A stretch of 64,000 nt of DNA. Source: Bacteroidia bacterium. Its GTDB lineage: Bacteria > Bacteroidota > Bacteroidia > UKL13-3. The notes under the pieces were generated by a model that worked only from the letters and a program-made list of their open reading frames with translations, was not told the origin of the DNA and ran no database searches. Location of the stretch: NCBI GenBank assembly GCA_020049855.1, contig JAGVLJ010000001.1:62001-126000 (forward strand). Reading direction: 5' to 3'. The position numbers and the translations under genes were made by a program. Below are positions 1,068 through 11,117 of this stretch, piece after piece (positions within the stretch are counted from its first letter, which is position 1; every line of letters begins with the position of its first letter).

Positions 1068-1925
1068 CTATTCAACGTGATATTCTTTTCTCAAGGTATT
1101 TATTAAGATCTCTGCATCTTTATCCATTTGTTTCAAGCGTTCATTATAAAAGATAACAACTGCACCGTAAAAAACGACCTTATTCCCAAATACAATTAGC
1201 TTTGACTTATCATTGTTTAACAGTTTAGGATCAGCAGCAGGCTCGTTGTATTTACCCAGATTATAATTTTTAAAATTGAAAAGCTCAAACGCTAACTTTC
1301 CTAATTCAAACTGTGACATCTCATAGAATTCCTGTTGTTCCTTTATTTTTTTTCCGGCATCATCATACTTTATAATTCTGTCCACAGCCCCTTTTTTTCT
1401 TATTAGCCTCATACCACCCGAATTTTTTAATTGTGACAAAGTCCTTTCTGTAGGGCTCACTACAGATGGATGTGTAAGCGCTGCCCTATAGAGCCTGTAT
1501 ATCGCTGAATCCTGGTTTTTCGCAGCATCATAATTAAAACAAAGTTGTGCAAGTGAATCCATCTTAAGCGCCCTTTGTTTATTAAGGGATATAGCAGCGT
1601 GAATACTTACCATATCTGTTTCTGCATCTTCAATCATGGATATAATGAATTCCTTTTCCCGATTATGTTCGATGGTATGTTCCAGTTGATACTCTGCTAA
1701 AAAGCCACAGAATACAGCAAGAAAAAGCATTAAAAATTCCCATAAATAAGATTTCCAATTTTTCTTACCATGAGCATGTGAGTGGTGATGTACTTCCATA
1801 TTTTCAGTTTCCCGGATGGGGTTAATGGTTCCTGTGTCAGTAGCCGGAATAAATTCGCCTGAAGGATTTTCCGGTTCCATATTCTTCGGGTTGTCTAAAG
1901 GTTCTTCCTCTGTAGGGTCTGCCAT
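1068..1925 (-). CDS. hypothetical membrane protein with His-rich N-terminal segment and one TM helix
   Basis: 285 aa ORF; HHHSHAHGKKNWKSYLWEFLMLFLAVFCGFLAEYQLEHTIEHNREKEF. Confidence 0.75.
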   Translation of the reverse strand: MADPTEEEPLDNPKNMEPENPSGEFIPATDTGTINPIRETENMEVHHHSHAHGKKNWKSYLWEFLMLFLAVFCGFLAEYQLEHTIEHNREKEFIISMIEDAETDMVSIHAAISLNKQRALKMDSLAQLCFNYDAAKNQDSAIYRLYRAALTHPSVVSPTERTLSQLKNSGGMRLIRKKGAVDRIIKYDDAGKKIKEQQEFYEMSQFELGKLAFELFNFKNYNLGKYNEPAADPKLLNNDKSKLIVFGNKVVFYGAVVIFYNERLKQMDKDAEILINTLRKEYHVE

Positions 1926-2126: not shown

Positions 2127-2166
2127 TGGTTGACAATTAGTTTAATTATCGTAAATTTGTCAACCA
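2127..2166 (+). promoter_or_regulatory. predicted Bacteroidetes promoter overlapped by a perfect 10-bp inverted repeat (candidate operator)
   Basis: TGGTTGACAA (2127-2136) and TTGTCAACCA (2157-2166) are exact reverse complements; TTG (2130-2132)-N19-TAAATTTG (2152-2159) matches TTG-N19-TAnnTTTG. Confidence 0.75.
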
Positions 2167-2192
2167 ACAGGGATCTCAAATTAGATACAACA

Positions 2193-3263
2193 ATGGAAAA
2201 TGTCTTTGGAAATAAACTGGTGTCAGCCCGAAAGATGGCTGGCATGTCATTACAGGACTTAGAAACCAAACTTGAAAAAGTTGTTTCTCGTCAGGCATTG
2301 CATAAATACGAACAAGGCAAAATGAAACCCGATAGTCAGGTGCTGATTGCATTGTCTGATGCTCTTAATGTTCCTGTTGACTATTTCTATTCTGTTTCAA
2401 CTGTTAAGGTGGAATTGAAAAATGTTGACTACCGAAAATACTCCTCTAAGATTTCTAAAACAGAACAAATAGCTGTTGAAGAAAAAGCAAAGGAAAATTG
2501 TGAACGCTATTTGGAACTGGAACATTTGATTAACCCAAGTGAGAAAGCAGAATACTTTACTTATGAAAAGGTCATTGAAAATGCAGATGACGCTGAAACT
2601 GCTGCAGAAAAATTAAGAGAAGTTTGGAAACTTGGTTATGACCCGATTCCTGATGTAGTTGAAATGTTAGAGGACAAAGGTTATAAAGTAATTGAACTGG
2701 ATGCTCCTGATGGTTTTGATGGAATGAAAGCGGATGTTGACGGCAAAAAGATAATTGTGCTGAAAAAGAGTGTGACGCAAGGCGAAGATGTTGTAAGAAA
2801 AAGATTAACCGCTTTGCATGAACTGGCTCACCACTCTCTGGCTTTTTCAAAAAAACTTTCTGATAAGGAAATAGAAAAATTGTGTCATACTTTTTCATCT
2901 GCTGTGCTGTATCCTGCTGATATGGCAAAGAAGGAATTGAGTAAAGACCGTTTCCATTTTTATCAAAATGAATTGCTACTGATTAAAGAAAGATGGGGTA
3001 TTTCTTTCTCTGCTGTTTTTTCAAGGGCTTTACATCTCGGCATTATCACCAGTTTTATTTATAAGCGTTTCAATATTGGTTACAGAGAAAGAGGATTACA
3101 CTTGAATGAGCCGGGAAAATTTATGAGCAAAGAAAAACCTGTGAAAATGCAACGGTTGGTTTACATGGGTCTGTCAAAGGAAATTCTAACTATTAACGAA
3201 GCAGCATACTATCTCGGAATGTCGGCTTGGAAATTTAAAGAACAATTGCATCAGATAGTATGA
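2193..3263 (+). CDS. XRE-family HTH fused to ImmA/IrrE-like zinc metallopeptidase
   Basis: N-terminal HTH (GNKLVSARKMAGMSLQDLETKL...SRQALHKYEQGKMKP) and HELAHH (HExxH) motif; the start at 2193 (MENVFGNK) fits the promoter better than the track start at 2130. Confidence 0.9.
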   Translation: MENVFGNKLVSARKMAGMSLQDLETKLEKVVSRQALHKYEQGKMKPDSQVLIALSDALNVPVDYFYSVSTVKVELKNVDYRKYSSKISKTEQIAVEEKAKENCERYLELEHLINPSEKAEYFTYEKVIENADDAETAAEKLREVWKLGYDPIPDVVEMLEDKGYKVIELDAPDGFDGMKADVDGKKIIVLKKSVTQGEDVVRKRLTALHELAHHSLAFSKKLSDKEIEKLCHTFSSAVLYPADMAKKELSKDRFHFYQNELLLIKERWGISFSAVFSRALHLGIITSFIYKRFNIGYRERGLHLNEPGKFMSKEKPVKMQRLVYMGLSKEILTINEAAYYLGMSAWKFKEQLHQIV

Positions 3264-3760
3264 AATTAATTATTACAGACAGCAGTGTATTTTTTGACAT
3301 CATAAAGATTCAGGCATTGCCTGAATTCTTTGCGTTGGATTTTGAAATATGCACTACTGATTTTGTAAAAAGTGAAATTTTAGAATCGGAACAAAGAGAG
3401 CAGATTGAAATGTTTATTCGTTCACATCAGCTAATTGTTTTTGTGTTGAGTGAACAAGAAATAGAAGAGATAGAAAATTTTAAAACGAAACGGTTTTTCA
3501 AAACACTGATTGATAAAACAGTTTTATGGAAAGCAAAGCAATTGAAATGTCCTTTACTAACTGGTGATGCAAAGTTGAGAAGTGAAGCAATTGAACAAGG
3601 TGTAACAGTGCATGGAAGTTTATGGGTAATACAAATTATGGTTGAAAGCAAAGTAATTACTGCAAAAGCAGGGATTGAATTTTTAGAAAAGCTTAAAATC
3701 AGCAATGACCGTTTGCCGTTAGATGAAATTGAAAAATTGATTAAAAAATTAAAACGCTAA
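3260..3760 (+). CDS. PIN-like domain protein (putative ribonuclease)
   Basis: PIN-like acidic pattern: IITDSSVFFD, VKSEI, LLTGDAKLRSEA...VHGSLWVI; ATGA overlap with the upstream gene. Confidence 0.75.
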   Translation: MKLIITDSSVFFDIIKIQALPEFFALDFEICTTDFVKSEILESEQREQIEMFIRSHQLIVFVLSEQEIEEIENFKTKRFFKTLIDKTVLWKAKQLKCPLLTGDAKLRSEAIEQGVTVHGSLWVIQIMVESKVITAKAGIEFLEKLKISNDRLPLDEIEKLIKKLKR

Positions 3761-3764
3761 GGTT

Positions 3765-4730
3765 ATGGCAAGAGAACATGTAAGTCACTCTGACATTGCT
3801 CAGTTTGCAAAGGACAAGGTTAATTTACCTAGAGAAAAAGCTGATGATTACAGAGAACAAGCAAAAAGGTTAAGCGATAGAATAGAATCATATATTGGAG
3901 AACATCCTGACTTTACAATAAAGAGAATAATGTTGTCAGGAAGCCTTGCAAAGGGTACATCATTGCGTTCTTCAAGTGATGCTGATGTTGCCTGTTACAT
4001 AAGTGGTGCTGATGTTCCAAAAGATATAAAAAAACTGTTGGAATACTTGGCTGAAAAACTAAAGACTGCATTTCCAAATTTTAAACCTGAACAAGTTAAA
4101 CCTCAAACCTATTCTGTAACGGTGTCATTCATAGGTACAGGACTTGATGTTGATATCGTCCCAATACTCTATGACGGAAATAAAGAGTGGTCTGGAAATT
4201 TGGTAAGTCAAGATGATGGTTCTTTTCTTGAAACCTGTATCCCAAAACATATTGAGTTTATAAAGAGCCGCAAGAAAAAACAGGAAACACATTTTGCTCA
4301 AGTTGTAAGGCTTGCTAAATTTTGGGTAAAATATTTAAAGTCTGAAAATGAAAAGTTCCGATTCAAATCTTTTATGGTTGAATTAGTATTAGCTAAGTTA
4401 TCGGATGAGGGAAAAGATTTTTCAGATTATCCCGAAGCCTTGCAACATTTCTTCACATACTTAGCAAAAAGCAACATTAAGGATTTGATATACTTTACAG
4501 ATTACTACACTGCTAAAGAATTAGGAGAATTTAAAGAACCAGTTAGAATTATCGATCCTGTGAATCCAAAAAACAATGCGTCAAAATTGTACACAACTGA
4601 ACAAGCAAAAGTAATTGTTGAAGCTGCTATTGAAGCTGGCGATGCTATTGATGCGGCTTTGGCGGCAACAACAAAACAAGACACAATATATTATTGGCAA
4701 AAAGTTTTTGGACCAACATTTAACATTTAA
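3765..4730 (+). CDS. CD-NTase-like nucleotidyltransferase (CBASS cyclase)
   Basis: SGSLAKGTSLRSSSDADVACY (GS...DxD) and LDVDIVPILY third acidic residue; followed by HORMA-like and TRIP13-like genes. Confidence 0.85.
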   Translation: MAREHVSHSDIAQFAKDKVNLPREKADDYREQAKRLSDRIESYIGEHPDFTIKRIMLSGSLAKGTSLRSSSDADVACYISGADVPKDIKKLLEYLAEKLKTAFPNFKPEQVKPQTYSVTVSFIGTGLDVDIVPILYDGNKEWSGNLVSQDDGSFLETCIPKHIEFIKSRKKKQETHFAQVVRLAKFWVKYLKSENEKFRFKSFMVELVLAKLSDEGKDFSDYPEALQHFFTYLAKSNIKDLIYFTDYYTAKELGEFKEPVRIIDPVNPKNNASKLYTTEQAKVIVEAAIEAGDAIDAALAATTKQDTIYYWQKVFGPTFNI

Positions 4731-4738
4731 AAATAAAA

Positions 4739-5251
4739 ATGAATAGTTATACAAATACGGGCACCCAAGCATTTACGATTACACATGCAAGGAAAATCGC
4801 ATCAAAAGTAGCCACAGATTTGAAAAGGTTACAGCGTTTTTATAATTCACCCTCCGATTCTGACATTCAGGCATATGAAACCGAAATTATTGAATTACTC
4901 AAAGAAGGATACTTAGGTACGGTTAAATATGGATTTAAAAAGGATGATAAATGGATTGAACCGACATTATGTTACACGGCAAAAGATTTTTCTGGCATGT
5001 CGCCTGAAGACAATGACCCAGGTCGCATTACACCAGAGGTTAACATTGAAGGTGCTAATTTCTATTCCTATCTTACCTATAATAGTAACTGGGATAAACT
5101 CACAAGTGACGAAAAGGATGCTTTTAAAAAGGCTCTTCCATTTCAACGAACAGGTGCAAGCGAACCTGGAATAAATGGGTGTTTAATCACTGACAAAATA
5201 TACTCTTCAGGCGGTAAAGGAGTAGAACGTTCATTAGTAAAAAATTATTAA
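4739..5251 (+). CDS. bacterial HORMA-like CBASS accessory protein (Cap7-like)
   Basis: 170 aa, FTITHARKIASKVATDLKRLQRFY start typical of bacterial HORMA proteins; between a CD-NTase and a TRIP13-like ATPase. Confidence 0.7.
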   Translation: MNSYTNTGTQAFTITHARKIASKVATDLKRLQRFYNSPSDSDIQAYETEIIELLKEGYLGTVKYGFKKDDKWIEPTLCYTAKDFSGMSPEDNDPGRITPEVNIEGANFYSYLTYNSNWDKLTSDEKDAFKKALPFQRTGASEPGINGCLITDKIYSSGGKGVERSLVKNY

Positions 5252-6186
5252 TGGAAGCAGGTAAACCAAAATTTGAAGAATTATTTGAGCAGGCAATAAA
5301 TTATCCTGACCCTGATATGCAGGAAAGGCTTGCTAAATTAGTTGGTCTTGATGCTGAGAAGGAACATTTGACTAAAACTCTTGGATTGTTAGTTAATCCT
5401 GAAGGGTTAAAGAAATGGGTAAATCAATACCACCCTAAAGCAAAAAAAATTACTGATATAGTTTTAAGGCGACCACCTTTAATTGTGTTGGCAGGTGATG
5501 TAGGTTCAGGTAAATCTGAATTAGCAAGTACAATTGCAGATGCAGTTGCACGACAAGAAAAAATAGACATCACTTTATTCCCACTTAGTCTATCTACAAG
5601 AGGAAACGGAATGGTCGGACAAATGACTCAACTAATTTCTGCTGCTTTTGATTATACCGTTGAGAAAGCCAAAAAACTTCAAAGTGATACAGGTAAAAAA
5701 AGAGGTGCTGTAATATTGTTAGTTGATGAAGCAGATTCTTTGGCTCAATCTCGTGAAAGTTCTCAAATGCATCACGAAGATAAAGCAGGCGTAAATGCTT
5801 TTATAAGAGGAGTTGATAGTCTTGGAAATGGGAAATTACCTGCGGCTGTAATAATGTGTACAAACAGACCTAATGCACTTGACCCTGCAATAAAAAGAAG
5901 AGCGGCAGATATTTTTTATTTCAAAAGACCAAGCAAAATTGAGAGGCATAAGGTTTTATTTGAAACACTATCTGAACTCGGGATTAAAGAGAAGGATATA
6001 AACGAAATCGTTGATGTTACAGGCTCACAAGGAGAACGGGAATATGGATTTACTTATTCCGATTTAATTCAAAGATTGATTCCTACTATCATATTAGATG
6101 CATATCCAAACAAAGCTGTAACAGGTGAAAGAGGAATTGAAATAGCTAAATCAATAATTCCAACTCCACCATTTAAAGAACAATAA
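5251..6186 (+). CDS. TRIP13/Pch2-like AAA+ ATPase (Cap6-like)
   Basis: Walker A GDVGSGKS, Walker B VILLVDEADSLA, LSTRGNGMVGQMTQLISAAFD segment; TAATG overlap with the HORMA-like gene. Confidence 0.85.
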   Translation: MEAGKPKFEELFEQAINYPDPDMQERLAKLVGLDAEKEHLTKTLGLLVNPEGLKKWVNQYHPKAKKITDIVLRRPPLIVLAGDVGSGKSELASTIADAVARQEKIDITLFPLSLSTRGNGMVGQMTQLISAAFDYTVEKAKKLQSDTGKKRGAVILLVDEADSLAQSRESSQMHHEDKAGVNAFIRGVDSLGNGKLPAAVIMCTNRPNALDPAIKRRAADIFYFKRPSKIERHKVLFETLSELGIKEKDINEIVDVTGSQGEREYGFTYSDLIQRLIPTIILDAYPNKAVTGERGIEIAKSIIPTPPFKEQ

Positions 6187-6189
6187 AGT

Positions 6190-7014
6190 ATGAGTAAAAT
6201 AAATATTGCCGATTTGTTTGCAGGTCTGCAAAAACAAATGGTTGCACAGTTGAATACAAACAGAGAATTTATTGAGCATCCGGGGTCAAAGGGAGATGCT
6301 TTAGAAAACGCTTGGATTGAGTGGTTAAGAAAATACCTTCCGAATCGCTATTGTATTGATAAAGCAATTGTGATTGACCACACTGGTGAAACCAGTCATC
6401 AAATGGATATTGTGATTTACGACAACTGGTACACACCATTTATTTTTTCTCAAAATGGTTTTCATTACATACCAGCAGAAGGAGTGTATGCTGTATTTGA
6501 AGTAAAGCCTGATATTTCAGGGTATTCGGATGCTAAGACAAACATTGAATATGCTGGAGAAAAAATTGAAAGTGTCAGGGTATTAAAAAGAACTTCTACT
6601 GGAATGATAAATTCTGGGAAGCCAGTTCTTGCAAGACCATTAACCAAAATTGTTGGAGGAGTTTTGACTTCAACAAAGTCAGGAGATAGAACAAATAATG
6701 ATACATTAATTAAGCATATACAAAGTCAAAAAAACCTTAGAAGTTTAGACATTGGTTGTATAGCTGATTACGGTAGCTTTTTTGTCAACTATAGCCCAGA
6801 CGAAGAAATAAAAGAAACAGGGCAGGAAAGATTTTTGGAATTTTATTCAAAAAGAGATTTCAAGGAAATGCGGTTTAGCAAGTCCGAAAACTCATTAGTA
6901 ACTTTTTTTATGCAGTTGACAAGATACTTGCAACAGGCAATTGGAACGATACCAGCAATTGACTTAAACAAATACTCAGAGAGTGTCGGATTTACAATTG
7001 ACGATAAAATTTAA
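6190..7014 (+). CDS. DUF6602-like protein, putative PD-(D/E)XK nuclease fold
   Basis: GSKGDALENAWIEWLRKYLP...HQMDIVIYD...EGVYAVFEVKP gives the E / D / ExK arrangement of restriction-endonuclease-like folds. Confidence 0.7.
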   Translation: MSKINIADLFAGLQKQMVAQLNTNREFIEHPGSKGDALENAWIEWLRKYLPNRYCIDKAIVIDHTGETSHQMDIVIYDNWYTPFIFSQNGFHYIPAEGVYAVFEVKPDISGYSDAKTNIEYAGEKIESVRVLKRTSTGMINSGKPVLARPLTKIVGGVLTSTKSGDRTNNDTLIKHIQSQKNLRSLDIGCIADYGSFFVNYSPDEEIKETGQERFLEFYSKRDFKEMRFSKSENSLVTFFMQLTRYLQQAIGTIPAIDLNKYSESVGFTIDDKI

Positions 7015-7017
7015 AGC

Positions 7018-8088
7018 ATGAATAGAAAAACACAATACGCAATTAACGGTGCAATTGGCGGAACACTTATTTCGGCTTTAATAAATGTCTTCAAGCAACT
7101 AAACAGAATCGAAGAAAATCCTCAACTAAAATTTGATTGGTCTGAGTTGTTCAAAGCTGGTGGGAAAGGAGCTTTAATTGGCGGTTGCGGTGGTTTGGTT
7201 GTCGGAGCAATTGTTGATGAAGTCAATGCAAATACAAAAGCTATAAACACCGATGCTTATCTGAGTTCTTTTGCCTTTGCAGTGCAAGCAGACAAAAACT
7301 CTTCTCTTTACAAAGTGAGTGAAAGAAAGTGTGGGCAAATAATAAAGTTCTTAGAGAGAGAATTTGCTTCTGAACTTTCAGATGTGCCTTTTCAATGGGG
7401 TTCAAATGCAAAAGGTACAGCAATTGAAGGAAAGTCGGATTTTGATATTATGGTTCGGTTTCATCCGAATAGTTTTACAGTTGAAGAAATGTACTATTCC
7501 GTATTAGATGCCTTCAAAGAAAAATTTTATGACAAAGCAATTATTGAAGTAGTTGACCAGAAAAAATCTATCGGACTTGTGTTCAGTTTAAAAGGTGAAA
7601 ATGTGAGAATAGATATTGTGCCAATGAGAGATATTGACACTAACCCAAGGAATACCGCCTCTAACTTATATGTAAACAACAAAGGGTTGTTTTCAAAACC
7701 TACAATTACTAAAACTGATATTCCATTACAAGCATCACTTCAATTAACGCCTACACAAAAGAAACTTATTGTCATGCTAAAGAAATGGAAGACTGATAAT
7801 GATGTGCCAATAAGCTCATACATGATTCAATTGTTTGTTGTCAAAGCGTATGAAAGAAATAGGAATAACATTCCAAGAAAGTTAACTGATAAGTTGATGT
7901 TGGTCTTGGATTTTATTGCTGAGAACATAAACACAATAAGACTTGTCAGCCCTGAGAACACAAATAATATTGTCAGCGATGTTCCAGCTACGGATAAGGC
8001 AACCATCAGAAAAAAGGCACTCAAAGTAGTTGAAGAGTATGAGTACCATCCTAACACAATACAATCATTTTTTGTCTTGGAAGACTAG
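7018..8088 (+). CDS. second CD-NTase-like nucleotidyltransferase with N-terminal glycine-zipper membrane segments
   Basis: AINGAIGGTLISALINVF and GGKGALIGGCGGLVVGAIVDE, then WGSNAKGTAIEGKSDFDIMVRF and VRIDIVPMRDID. Confidence 0.8.
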   Translation: MNRKTQYAINGAIGGTLISALINVFKQLNRIEENPQLKFDWSELFKAGGKGALIGGCGGLVVGAIVDEVNANTKAINTDAYLSSFAFAVQADKNSSLYKVSERKCGQIIKFLEREFASELSDVPFQWGSNAKGTAIEGKSDFDIMVRFHPNSFTVEEMYYSVLDAFKEKFYDKAIIEVVDQKKSIGLVFSLKGENVRIDIVPMRDIDTNPRNTASNLYVNNKGLFSKPTITKTDIPLQASLQLTPTQKKLIVMLKKWKTDNDVPISSYMIQLFVVKAYERNRNNIPRKLTDKLMLVLDFIAENINTIRLVSPENTNNIVSDVPATDKATIRKKALKVVEEYEYHPNTIQSFFVLED

Positions 8089-8301
8089 CGTCCGTGAACT
8101 TCAAAAGCGTTGGGGATTGCACTCTTTATTGGATGCATTTGTGACGTTGCAAAATAATGAAAGTGTGTTTTGTATGGTGGGATAGATGGGTTTTTGTAAA
8201 TGTATCAAAAATCTCATAAACCATCAAAAGGGGGAGGTAATTTTTTGAATGCTTTTGGGGAGGGTGTAGTCCCGCAGTTAAAAAAGCAGGGAAACCCGTT
8301 A

Positions 8302-9825
8302 CTAAGAGCCTTGGGCTTTCAGGTAGCGTTGATAGTCTTTCATAATGGCCTTGTACAGCAACTCGGCCAGTAAATTTGCCCCGCGTGGCGACAGGTGGGT
8401 GAAATCTTTTGCGGCCAGTGGCGGGTTATTAAACACCCACAAGGGCATGGAGTTTTTACCTCCCATGGCTTCATAGGCATCCCAAAAAGCACAGCCTGCC
8501 GCAAAAGCTGCCCTGCGCTGGGCATCGCGTATCATTTCAAGGTAGGGATACGTGGCGTAATCGGTTCCTTCTTTGGTAGAGATATCGGTGGTGCCCACAA
8601 CCAAAATGCTTACCCCGGGCAGTTGGCGTTTGAGTAATTGCAATTGTTTTAAAAAACTGTATTCGTAGTACTGCACCGCCTGCGAATCTTTTACGTAAGG
8701 CACCACATTTACCCCATACTGCAAAATGATAAATTTGGTTCCGCGCAGCTGATGTTGTTTGGCTAAATAAGGGCCGTTCATTCGGGTAAAGTCGGTTCCC
8801 GAACTGCCACGCATGGAGTAATTGTCCACCCGCACCCCGTTTTCGCGGTCAAGCGACACCCCCATTATATCCGGACTTTGCCCGCTGATAAACGTAAGTT
8901 TGATATAGCCGCTGCTATCGGTGGTGCTCCATGTTTTGGTCCCCACTTCGGCAGCCGAGATGGTATCGGACAAAATGCCTCCGTTTTTTTCTACCCGCAA
9001 CTGAACGGTGCGCTGACTGGCATACCACAGCGTGGCGCGGTCATAGTTTTTTACGGTGGCGTAAGAGAGTTTGCTTCGTTTAAATGATAACCAGGGCAGG
9101 CCTCCGCTGCTCACCCACACCGATTGTAAAACACTATCGGCACCCGTTGAATCTTTGGCTACTTTTTTTGTAACCAGATAGCCGTTGCGGTAGCTGTACA
9201 TGGCCCCCGAAATACCGTAGCGGCTTTCGTTCACCTTGCTTTGCGGGTATCCGTAGCAGGCCTGTTTAATCCACTCGCGGCTTTCGCGTTGCTGCACGGT
9301 AATGCGCATGGTGGAAACATCAATGGGGGTAACCAGTCCGGGACCACCACCGCCAAATTGTTTTTGAAGTTTATTGCGCAGGTAATCCGAAAAACGGTCG
9401 CCCTCTACCTGCGAATCGCCATAGTAGGCCACTGCCAAAGGGGAGCCTTGTTGCGCGCATTGATGCAGAGCCTCAAAAAAAGTGTTCAGGTCGTCAGCGT
9501 TGTTGCGGCCATGTTGCAGGTTAAACTCGGTGGTGGTATCGGCCGGGTGAAAAGCCGAATCTATTGAGATAAGCGCAAAGGACTCCTCTTCATTTTCGGC
9601 TGAATCTACCTGTACCGAAGTAACAAGGTGTTTAATGTTTTTGGTGGTATGTTCTTTTCCGTGCAACACCTGTTGCAGGGGTACAAAGTGCAGCGAAAAC
9701 CCATCGGTGAGTTTCCATTCTCCATCAGGCATAAGCAGCACAAAAAGCAGTAAGAACAGTTGGATGTAAATAACAATGAAAAAAACTTTTCGCGGACGTA
9801 TGGTTTTAGGAATTTCCTCTTCCAT
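8302..9825 (-). CDS. SGNH/GDSL-type hydrolase family protein, membrane anchored
   Basis: N-terminal TM; AVAYYGDSQVEGDRFSDYLRNKL and DFTHLSPRGANLLAELLYKAI blocks. Confidence 0.8.
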   Translation of the reverse strand: MEEEIPKTIRPRKVFFIVIYIQLFLLLFVLLMPDGEWKLTDGFSLHFVPLQQVLHGKEHTTKNIKHLVTSVQVDSAENEEESFALISIDSAFHPADTTTEFNLQHGRNNADDLNTFFEALHQCAQQGSPLAVAYYGDSQVEGDRFSDYLRNKLQKQFGGGGPGLVTPIDVSTMRITVQQRESREWIKQACYGYPQSKVNESRYGISGAMYSYRNGYLVTKKVAKDSTGADSVLQSVWVSSGGLPWLSFKRSKLSYATVKNYDRATLWYASQRTVQLRVEKNGGILSDTISAAEVGTKTWSTTDSSGYIKLTFISGQSPDIMGVSLDRENGVRVDNYSMRGSSGTDFTRMNGPYLAKQHQLRGTKFIILQYGVNVVPYVKDSQAVQYYEYSFLKQLQLLKRQLPGVSILVVGTTDISTKEGTDYATYPYLEMIRDAQRRAAFAAGCAFWDAYEAMGGKNSMPLWVFNNPPLAAKDFTHLSPRGANLLAELLYKAIMKDYQRYLKAQGS

Positions 9826-9833
9826 TGAAGAAA

Positions 9834-11117
9834 TCAGTCTTTTTTACGCAAGGCGTTTTTTTGTGCCCTGGTCATTCTGTTAATTTTATTGTAGTGCACA
9901 AACTTTTTCCCGGGCACCCAAATAATAAGCTTTTGCCCTAAACGCACATTGGTTGTTTTGAGTTTATTCCACGACTTTATCTGTTGCGGTGTTACATCAA
10001 ACCAGTCGGCAATATTGCCCAGCACATCTCCGCTTTTAACTGTGTACATCACTCGTTTTTTATCAAACACTTTAGCGGGTTCTTCTTTGGTTGTTTTAAC
10101 AGGTTCGGTTGATGCTTCTTCCTTTTTAGGGGTAGGTTCTCCCGGCTGGTCGGTAGTGGCGGGTGTTGGTGCTTCTTCCGGTTTGGTCTCCGTTTTTTGA
10201 ATCGTCACCGGACTCATGTCAGATGGTTTAGGAACATAAATATACACCGAGTCCTTCAATCGGTTCCAATACTTAGCTTTTCCCCTTGGCAGATTAATAA
10301 GGTAATTGGGTGTACCCAGCGGAATGATATCTTTTTTGAAAATAGGATTTAACTCGCGTAGTTCTTCCATTGCAATATCCAATGTTGATGAAATTTGCTG
10401 AAACGAAAGCCATTTGTTTACTGTTACGGTATCGTTGGTAACAGGCTGAGGTAATTTTGCCGGCAAAATATTATGCTCCCGGTAAAAATTAAAAATATAG
10501 GCCGAGGCGATAAACTGTGGTATCAGCTCTTTGTTTTCAAGCGGCAACAAGGGATATACCTCCCAAAAATTCATCTTATATCCGCTTTGGCGAATGGCTT
10601 TATTTAAGATAGCCGGAGTGTTGGCATAGGCCGCCAACGTAAGTAACCAGTTATTGTAAATATTGTTTAAATCTTTAAGGTAAGAAGAAGAGGCCTGCGT
10701 AGATTTTACCAGGTCTTTACGTTCATCCACAAAGGAGTTTATTTTTAATCCATAAGTACGAGCCACGTTGTACATCATGCGCCAGTAGCCTGTTGCTCCG
10801 GCCGGAGATACAATGGCATTGTTAACTCCCGATGCCGCTACCATTAAATATTTTAATTCAACAGGCAATTGCTTTTCACGCAACAATTTTTCAATGAGTT
10901 GAAAATGCCCTTGACAGCGGCCTAAAATTTCGGCCGTTTTCTCGGGCTCTGCCAAAAACAGGTCTATCTGTTTGCGCACCGCTTCGTTATAACTTAGCTC
11001 AATAGGAGATTTTAAACTTGCCAGCCTCTGTTCGTATAGTTGATCGTTTTGATCGGGGGTTGCCCGGCAAGTTAAAAACAGGAGTACACAAAAAAATACC
11101 GCACCAATCCTTCTCAT
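9834..11117 (-). CDS. lytic transglycosylase-like protein with LysM domain
   Basis: SLT-like GATGYWRMMYNVARTYGLKINSFVDERKD; C-terminal LysM YTVKSGDVLGNIADWFDVTPQQIKSWN. Confidence 0.85.
   Translation of the reverse strand: MRRIGAVFFCVLLFLTCRATPDQNDQLYEQRLASLKSPIELSYNEAVRKQIDLFLAEPEKTAEILGRCQGHFQLIEKLLREKQLPVELKYLMVAASGVNNAIVSPAGATGYWRMMYNVARTYGLKINSFVDERKDLVKSTQASSSYLKDLNNIYNNWLLTLAAYANTPAILNKAIRQSGYKMNFWEVYPLLPLENKELIPQFIASAYIFNFYREHNILPAKLPQPVTNDTVTVNKWLSFQQISSTLDIAMEELRELNPIFKKDIIPLGTPNYLINLPRGKAKYWNRLKDSVYIYVPKPSDMSPVTIQKTETKPEEAPTPATTDQPGEPTPKKEEASTEPVKTTKEEPAKVFDKKRVMYTVKSGDVLGNIADWFDVTPQQIKSWNKLKTTNVRLGQKLIIWVPGKKFVHYNKINRMTRAQKNALRKKD

What the first reader, a model, noticed from the sequence alone, without database searches (positions are those of the whole stretch)
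2127..8088. Seven-gene type III (HORMA/TRIP13) CBASS-like operon with a non-standard composition
Seen: seven + strand genes with overlaps or gaps of 9 nt or less, encoding XRE-ImmA/IrrE, PIN-like, nucleotidyltransferase (GS...DADV, LDVDIVP), HORMA-like 170 aa protein, AAA+ ATPase with LSTRGNGMVGQMT, DUF6602-like PD-(D/E)XK protein and a second TM-nucleotidyltransferase. Established: HORMA (Cap7) and TRIP13 (Cap6) between or next to a CD-NTase define type III CBASS, usually with the NucC nuclease effector. Inference: this is a CBASS variant lacking recognisable NucC and carrying two nucleotidyltransferases, a different nuclease candidate and a protease/PIN module, so it may be a new subtype or a composite system.
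Basis: partly seen in the sequence, partly recalled or inferred. Interest (0 to 1): 0.88.

Follow-up and report, generated by a model that had tools for sequence, protein, structure and literature searches.

The report
Type III CBASS with second cyclase
This is a standard bacterial suicide-defence operon against phages (type III CBASS with the NucC DNA-shredding enzyme) that carries, right after NucC, a second signal-making enzyme with a probable membrane hairpin; the same kind of addition recurs in other Bacteroidota, which suggests two alarm inputs feeding one killer.

Summary
The seven co-directional genes are real, but the claim that NucC is missing is wrong: the DUF6602 protein (6190-7014) is NucC. 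The core, 3765-7014, is CdnC-HORMA-TRIP13-NucC in the gene order of the solved E. coli MS115-1 type III CBASS and is already known. The first two genes are an HTH-ImmA peptidase (RmrA/CapH-CapP-like) and a PIN nuclease, a RosmerTA-like pair behind a palindrome overlapping the promoter. The unusual part is the last gene: a CD-NTase with an N-terminal Gly-zipper hairpin and an intact catalytic triad, 3 nt after NucC. A relative occurs at 4 of 8 other Bacteroidota CdnC loci and beside NucC at 0 of 72 elsewhere, and also after NucC in a type II-short CBASS. Three further type II loci have a hairpin-free second cyclase after NucC. In 395 sampled genomes of the class, 5 of 13 intact NucC loci carry two cyclases. 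I found no description of two-cyclase CBASS in the open-access papers searched. Best reading: a two-input, one-effector CBASS. Rivals: an inhibitory or guard cyclase, or a membrane effector. Nothing was tested by experiment. New variant of a known kind.

The parts
2128..2165 (+). Putative operator and promoter: perfect inverted repeat GGTTGACAA-N20-TTGTCAACC over a Bacteroidota-type promoter (TTG-N19-TAAATTTG, 2130-2159)
   Evidence: no match in 100 shuffles, but the pattern was chosen after seeing it; 9-bp repeats with similar spacers occur 27 times in the window; half-site GTTGACAA occurs only twice in 21 kb of L019, both between regulator and CdnC
2193..3263 (+). HTH + ImmA/IrrE-type (M78) peptidase with intact HExxH; RmrA-like, CapH/CapP-like; predicted repressor and antitoxin
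   Evidence: start corrected from TTG 2130 to ATG 2193
3260..3760 (+). PIN-domain nuclease, predicted toxin partner of the previous gene (4-nt overlap)
   Evidence: Weak sequence match; model pLDDT 88 with PIN/VapC structural matches; conserved D7, E39, D85, D103
3765..4730 (+). CdnC, CD-NTase of type III CBASS
   Evidence: PDB 6p80 E 3e-136; NF041116; triad motifs
4739..5251 (+). HORMA protein (Cap7, bacHORMA_1)
5251..6186 (+). TRIP13-like AAA+ ATPase (Cap6)
6190..7014 (+). NucC endonuclease effector (DUF6602); D73, E104, K106 intact
   Evidence: tree
7018..8088 (+). Second CD-NTase with N-terminal two-helix Gly-zipper hairpin (residues 3-33 and 41-71); D141, D143, D199 intact

Best explanation
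A horizontally acquired type III CBASS operon in a Bacteroidota genome, extended at its 3' end by a second cyclase. CdnC, controlled by HORMA and TRIP13, makes a cyclic trinucleotide on infection; NucC binds it and destroys DNA, killing the cell before phage release (established for the E. coli homologue, inferred here). The last gene is a second CD-NTase from a group of cyclases nearly always found in operons with NucC. It is probably membrane-anchored and makes the same class of NucC activator in response to a different, perhaps membrane or entry, cue: two inputs, one effector. The HTH-ImmA protein represses the operon through the palindrome at 2128-2165; peptidase activation on DNA damage would derepress it and free the PIN nuclease as a further toxin. 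Shown by sequence: gene identities, intact catalytic residues, gene order, recurrence, phylogeny. Inferred: membrane insertion, nucleotide product, trigger, repression, and that both cyclases serve NucC.
For: Core identity. Second cyclase: CD-NTase fold and family; catalytic aspartates invariant in seven hairpin NTases at 22-41% identity to the window's, so catalysis is under selection. It follows NucC by 3-6 nt in the window, L019, L020 and L114, in both type III and type II CBASS. Of 13 genomes found with the NTase alone, 11 have NucC in the same locus. In two-gene loci such an NTase is the only cyclase next to NucC. Hairpin-free second cyclases also follow NucC (L115, L117, L121) and group with these two-gene cyclases. 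Five of 13 intact NucC loci in 395 genomes of the class have two cyclases.
Against: No biochemical evidence for the product. L118 has a hairpin NTase beside a CD-NTase and Cap2 without NucC. The hairpin's hydropathy is moderate and the model only fair (mean pLDDT 73). Clover and Panoptes show that a nucleotide-making enzyme can inhibit rather than activate an effector. Half of the Bacteroidota CdnC loci do without the second cyclase.
Confidence: 0.5

Rival explanations
1. The second CD-NTase is a brake or guard. It constitutively makes a nucleotide that holds NucC (or its own hairpin) inactive; loss of that nucleotide, for example to a phage sponge or nuclease, triggers killing.
For: Precedents: the Clover NTase CloB makes an inhibitory nucleotide that restrains its effector (PMC12265719); Panoptes OptS makes decoy cyclic nucleotides and is linked to CBASS (PMC12657218). 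Coupling right after a lethal effector gene suits a brake.
Against: Relatives of the second cyclase are the only cyclase in two-gene NucC loci, where they should activate. Most Bacteroidota CdnC loci have NucC without a second cyclase, so NucC does not need a brake in general.
Confidence: 0.2
2. The 2TM-NTase is itself an effector: the Gly-zipper hairpin disrupts the membrane, controlled by nucleotides bound or made by its NTase domain, so the operon has DNA and membrane killing arms.
For: Two-pass modules are common CBASS effectors (established knowledge). In L118 no other effector was recognised beside the CD-NTase and Cap2.
Against: The catalytic triad is conserved in all seven homologues, which a pure ligand-binding effector would not need; three type II loci have a second cyclase with no hairpin at the same place.
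Confidence: 0.12
3. Gene stacking without function in common: the 2TM-NTase is an independent or passenger defence gene that happens to sit after NucC.
For: Defence genes recombine often; NucC itself is exchanged between type II and III operons, and half of related loci lack the 2TM-NTase.
Against: Spacing of 3-6 nt after NucC is kept in four divergent loci of two CBASS types; enrichment at Bacteroidota CdnC loci 4/8 against 0/72 beside NucC elsewhere (Fisher 4e-5, not corrected for relatedness).
Confidence: 0.13

Closest known systems
Type III CBASS of E. coli MS115-1 (CdnC-HORMA-TRIP13-NucC; PDB 6p80, 6p8v, 6p7o)
   Same: All four core genes, same order, strong full-length or near full-length matches to the solved proteins
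   Different: Window adds an HTH-ImmA/PIN pair in front and a hairpin CD-NTase behind; its NucC is longer (274 against about 241 aa) and groups with Bacteroidota type II NucCs
Two-gene NTase + NucC loci (L012 Paenibacillus and L013 Rhizobium plasmids, L123, L125)
   Same: NTase of the same PADLOC family (PDLC00803, tested for L123) directly beside NucC
   Different: No hairpin, no HORMA/TRIP13; NTase precedes NucC and is the only cyclase there
Type II CBASS with NucC and a second CD-NTase (L114, L115, L117, L121)
   Same: Second CD-NTase right after NucC; L114 has the hairpin form, L121 also the HTH-ImmA + PIN pair
   Different: E2 or Cap2/Cap3 in place of HORMA/TRIP13; the second cyclases of L115, L117 and L121 are of another subgroup, without hairpin
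RosmerTA and CapH/CapP
   Same: HTH + ImmA-type peptidase; RmrA is known with PIN-like partners (PMC10440598); CapH/CapP control CBASS and other immune operons (PMC13373217)
   Different: HTH and peptidase are fused and co-transcribed with the CBASS genes here; most related CdnC loci have them divergent
Clover (CloB) and Panoptes (OptS)
   Same: Nucleotide-making enzymes that restrain an effector; possible models for the second cyclase
   Different: Other effectors (dGTPase CloA, 2TM-beta OptE); OptS is an mCpol, not a CD-NTase

Membership tests
Type III CBASS | CD-NTase, HORMA and TRIP13 genes in one operon | tested here: met
Type III CBASS | Effector gene in the operon (here NucC with intact nuclease residues) | tested here: met
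Type III CBASS | Infection-dependent synthesis of a cyclic nucleotide that activates the effector | not testable with these tools
   Needs biochemistry
CD-NTase (for 7018-8088) | CD-NTase fold with the three catalytic aspartates | tested here: met
   Foldseek best hits CdnC (E 7.5e-9) though at low TM-score; D141, D143, D199 invariant; PADLOC Cyclase 4.6e-42; below the NCBIfam CBASS_cyclase_b cut-off
CD-NTase (for 7018-8088) | Makes a cyclic or linear oligonucleotide | not testable with these tools
   Needs biochemistry
RosmerTA | ImmA-type antitoxin (RmrA) next to a partner toxin gene | tested here: met
   PADLOC RmrA 1.4e-42; PIN gene overlapping by 4 nt, fold supported
RosmerTA | Toxicity of the partner and neutralisation by RmrA | not testable with these tools
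   Needs experiment
CapH/CapP | HTH repressor plus separate M78 peptidase gene upstream of an immune operon | tested here: not met
   One fused protein that scores higher as RmrA than as CapP (2.6e-11) or CapH (1e-6); works-like claim not affected
Panoptes | mCpol synthase with a 2TM-beta effector | tested here: not met
   The second synthase is a CD-NTase with an N-terminal helical hairpin
Clover | dGTPase CloA with NTase CloB | tested here: not met
   No dGTPase/HD family match among the seven proteins

The most novel reading that the evidence does not exclude
A CBASS with two independent or opposed nucleotide inputs on one effector: the membrane-anchored second CD-NTase constitutively makes a guard nucleotide that restrains NucC (or makes a different signal on sensing membrane perturbation), so that the operon detects both the phage and the phage's anti-CBASS sponge.
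Probability: 0.17. Interest if true: 0.85.

Novelty: new variant of a known kind. Interest (0 to 1): 0.52.

Why it matters
CBASS is usually described as one cyclase feeding one or more effectors. If a second, membrane-anchored cyclase feeds or restrains the same NucC, CBASS can integrate two signals and NucC would be a shared hub rather than the property of one sensor. Recurrence in type II and type III operons makes this directly testable by deleting either cyclase in one operon, and gives a sequence handle for finding dual-cyclase systems that gene-by-gene annotation calls ordinary CBASS.

Tried and rejected
Rejected: 'lacks NucC'. Rejected: ORF start at 2127/2130 (inside the promoter). Single-protein scans with the 2TM-NTase found nothing in viral contigs or in the species-genome collection, because exact 8-mers miss relatives at 36-41% identity; the CdnC alignment scan then found them. 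CdnC gave nothing in phages or viral contigs. The 2TM-NTase had no hit in phages and only distant partial matches on plasmids, of which two read in context are hairpin-free and sit next to NucC. The gene after NucC in Acinetobacter (L007) was checked as a possible second cyclase; its sequence shows no CD-NTase motif and it did not match. A UPF0175-like antitoxin tail on the HTH-ImmA protein was considered but is only E 0.04 and not detected in the homologues, so it is not claimed. The operator palindrome is not repeated as a palindrome in L019 or L121; only its half-site recurs in L019. The empty-site comparison in the same genus (G397) was inconclusive: homology stops at window 1049 and 8300 but on two different contigs. 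A phylum-wide sample added no new hairpin NTases. Literature searches for two-cyclase CBASS returned no relevant paper, but only open-access papers are held, so the main CBASS classification papers could not be searched.

Full report
Observation. The window holds seven co-directional ORFs from 2130 to 8088 with gaps or overlaps of at most 8 nt, in DNA of 34-37% GC, against about 45-47% in most of the flanking sequence. The host is a Bacteroidota genome by inference: it carries 103 type IX secretion tail domains, and the two named loci with the closest CdnC are Bacteroidota. None of the other 96 genomes searched as relatives carries the CdnC, which fits recent acquisition or wide loss.

The core is ordinary. 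The third to sixth genes are CdnC (PDB 6p80, E 3e-136), HORMA (PF18138 3.5e-58; 6p8v_H), TRIP13 (6p8v_A) and NucC (PADLOC 3e-92; 6p7o). Several plasmid CdnC loci carry a gene annotated either as DUF6602 or as nucC at this same place, and D73, E104 and K106 are invariant in the NucC alignment. Gene order is that of the E. coli MS115-1 system. How it acts (HORMA binds and TRIP13 disassembles the cyclase complex; cAAA activates NucC) is taken from the review PMC10419184 and is not shown here.

The regulator. The first gene encodes an HTH domain fused to an ImmA-type peptidase with an intact HExxH. It scores best as RmrA and weaker as CapP and CapH. CapH + CapP control immune operons in response to DNA damage (PMC13373217). 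RmrA is the antitoxin of RosmerTA and pairs with various toxins, PIN-like domains among them (PMC10440598). An ImmA-type peptidase lies upstream of 46 of 80 CdnC loci and a WYL regulator upstream of 15, so a regulator here is expected. The PIN partner is less usual: among the 80 loci only L019 has it, and another case lies upstream of a type II CBASS with NucC (L121). The PIN fold is supported by a confident model (pLDDT 88) whose best structural matches are PIN proteins, VapC toxins among them, and by conserved acidic residues. A perfect inverted repeat, 2128-2165, covers both elements of a Bacteroidota-type promoter. This is the likely operator, and it means the TTG at 2130 is not the start; ATG 2193 is more likely. 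The repeat was noticed before it was tested, and 9-bp repeats of similar spacing are not rare in the window (27); what sets it apart is its place. L019, whose regulator is 37% identical, has its only two copies of the half-site GTTGACAA in 21 kb between the regulator and CdnC.

The second cyclase. The last gene begins 3 nt after NucC. Residues 3-33 and 41-71 are modelled as two long helices with a weak Gly-zipper signature. Hydropathy is moderate, so membrane insertion is likely but not shown. The rest is a CD-NTase (PADLOC PDLC00803 4.6e-42; best structural matches CdnC, E 7.5e-9; the low TM-scores go with a model of mean pLDDT 73). Homologues with the N-terminal segment, 22-41% identical, were found in six other loci and keep the three catalytic aspartates; in L027 and L118 they are the most divergent.

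Recurrence. Among the 80 CdnC loci from species genomes, the hairpin NTase lies directly after NucC in L019 and L020, downstream with an Mrr-like nuclease gene between in L068, and just upstream of CdnC in L027. That is 4 of 8 Bacteroidota loci and 0 of 72 others beside NucC; a distant NTase in L033 is on the opposite strand at a locus without a recognised NucC. Fisher p is 4e-5 without correction for relatedness, or 2e-4 if L033 is counted. It is not tied to HORMA/TRIP13: in G568 (L114) it follows NucC in a type II-short CBASS (CD-NTase, E2, NucC, hairpin NTase). In three other genomes (L115, L117, L121) a type II CBASS (CD-NTase, Cap2, Cap3, NucC) ends in a second CD-NTase without a hairpin. 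A search with NucC in 395 genomes of the class gave 13 intact loci and one fragment; five of the 13 carry two cyclases (window, G461, G568, G696, G703).

Why the second cyclase probably serves NucC. Searching with the NTase alone gave 13 genomes. NucC is in the same locus in 11; one contig ends too early to tell (G479) and one shows no NucC (G523, L118). In two-gene loci such an NTase is the only cyclase next to NucC. In the NTase tree the hairpin-free second cyclases fall with these two-gene cyclases (100/99), while six of the seven hairpin NTases form a group (94/94) beside the type II cyclases, with weak support for that sister relation (80/65) and two long branches. The NucC tree puts the window's NucC with type II NucCs (99/99) rather than with the other type III ones. 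Sensors and effector are thus exchanged, and NucC is the constant companion of this NTase family.

Mechanism and rivals. I favour two cyclases feeding one NucC (0.5). A brake or guard is the main rival, with precedents in Clover and Panoptes. An effector role for the hairpin is kept open by L118. Chance association is disfavoured by conserved spacing and catalytic residues. The identity of the nucleotide is inference; the window's NucC differs from E. coli NucC in the segment aligned with PIPHAGGTYP, so its ligand may differ.

Novelty. The core and each module are known. A second CD-NTase, in particular a hairpin-bearing one, as a recurrent part of NucC CBASS is not described in the open-access papers I could search; mention in subscription papers cannot be excluded. 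I therefore rate it a new variant of a known kind.

Noticed in passing
L121 (G696) 2500-10320: Type II CBASS (CD-NTase, Cap2, Cap3, NucC) with a second, hairpin-free CD-NTase after NucC and a divergent HTH-ImmA + PIN pair: the closest parallel to the window outside type III CBASS.
   Followed up: partly
L118 (G523) 4945-8528: Hairpin NTase followed by a CD-NTase and a ThiF/Cap2 protein, with no NucC recognised, next to genes that look like a type III CRISPR module by eye (those genes were not tested).
   Followed up: partly
L122 4821-6089 and L142 7283-8548: NucC appears fused behind a Cap3-like (JAB) segment in one ORF of 421-422 aa (JAB part judged from gene order and sequence, not from a domain search).
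   Followed up: no
L006, L017, L018: CdnC-HORMA-TRIP13 loci whose effector is a SAVED-domain protein instead of NucC, with GNAT and small DNA-binding protein genes in front (plasmid annotation).
   Followed up: no
L027 8528-8773: 81-aa protein without Pfam match just before the hairpin NTase that precedes CdnC.
   Followed up: no
L068 7083-7847: Mrr-like restriction endonuclease gene between NucC and the hairpin NTase.
   Followed up: partly
window 1068-1925 (-): 285-aa ORF beside the operon with no Pfam match at 1e-5; homology to same-genus genome G397 stops at 1049, so it lies within the variable stretch.
   Followed up: no
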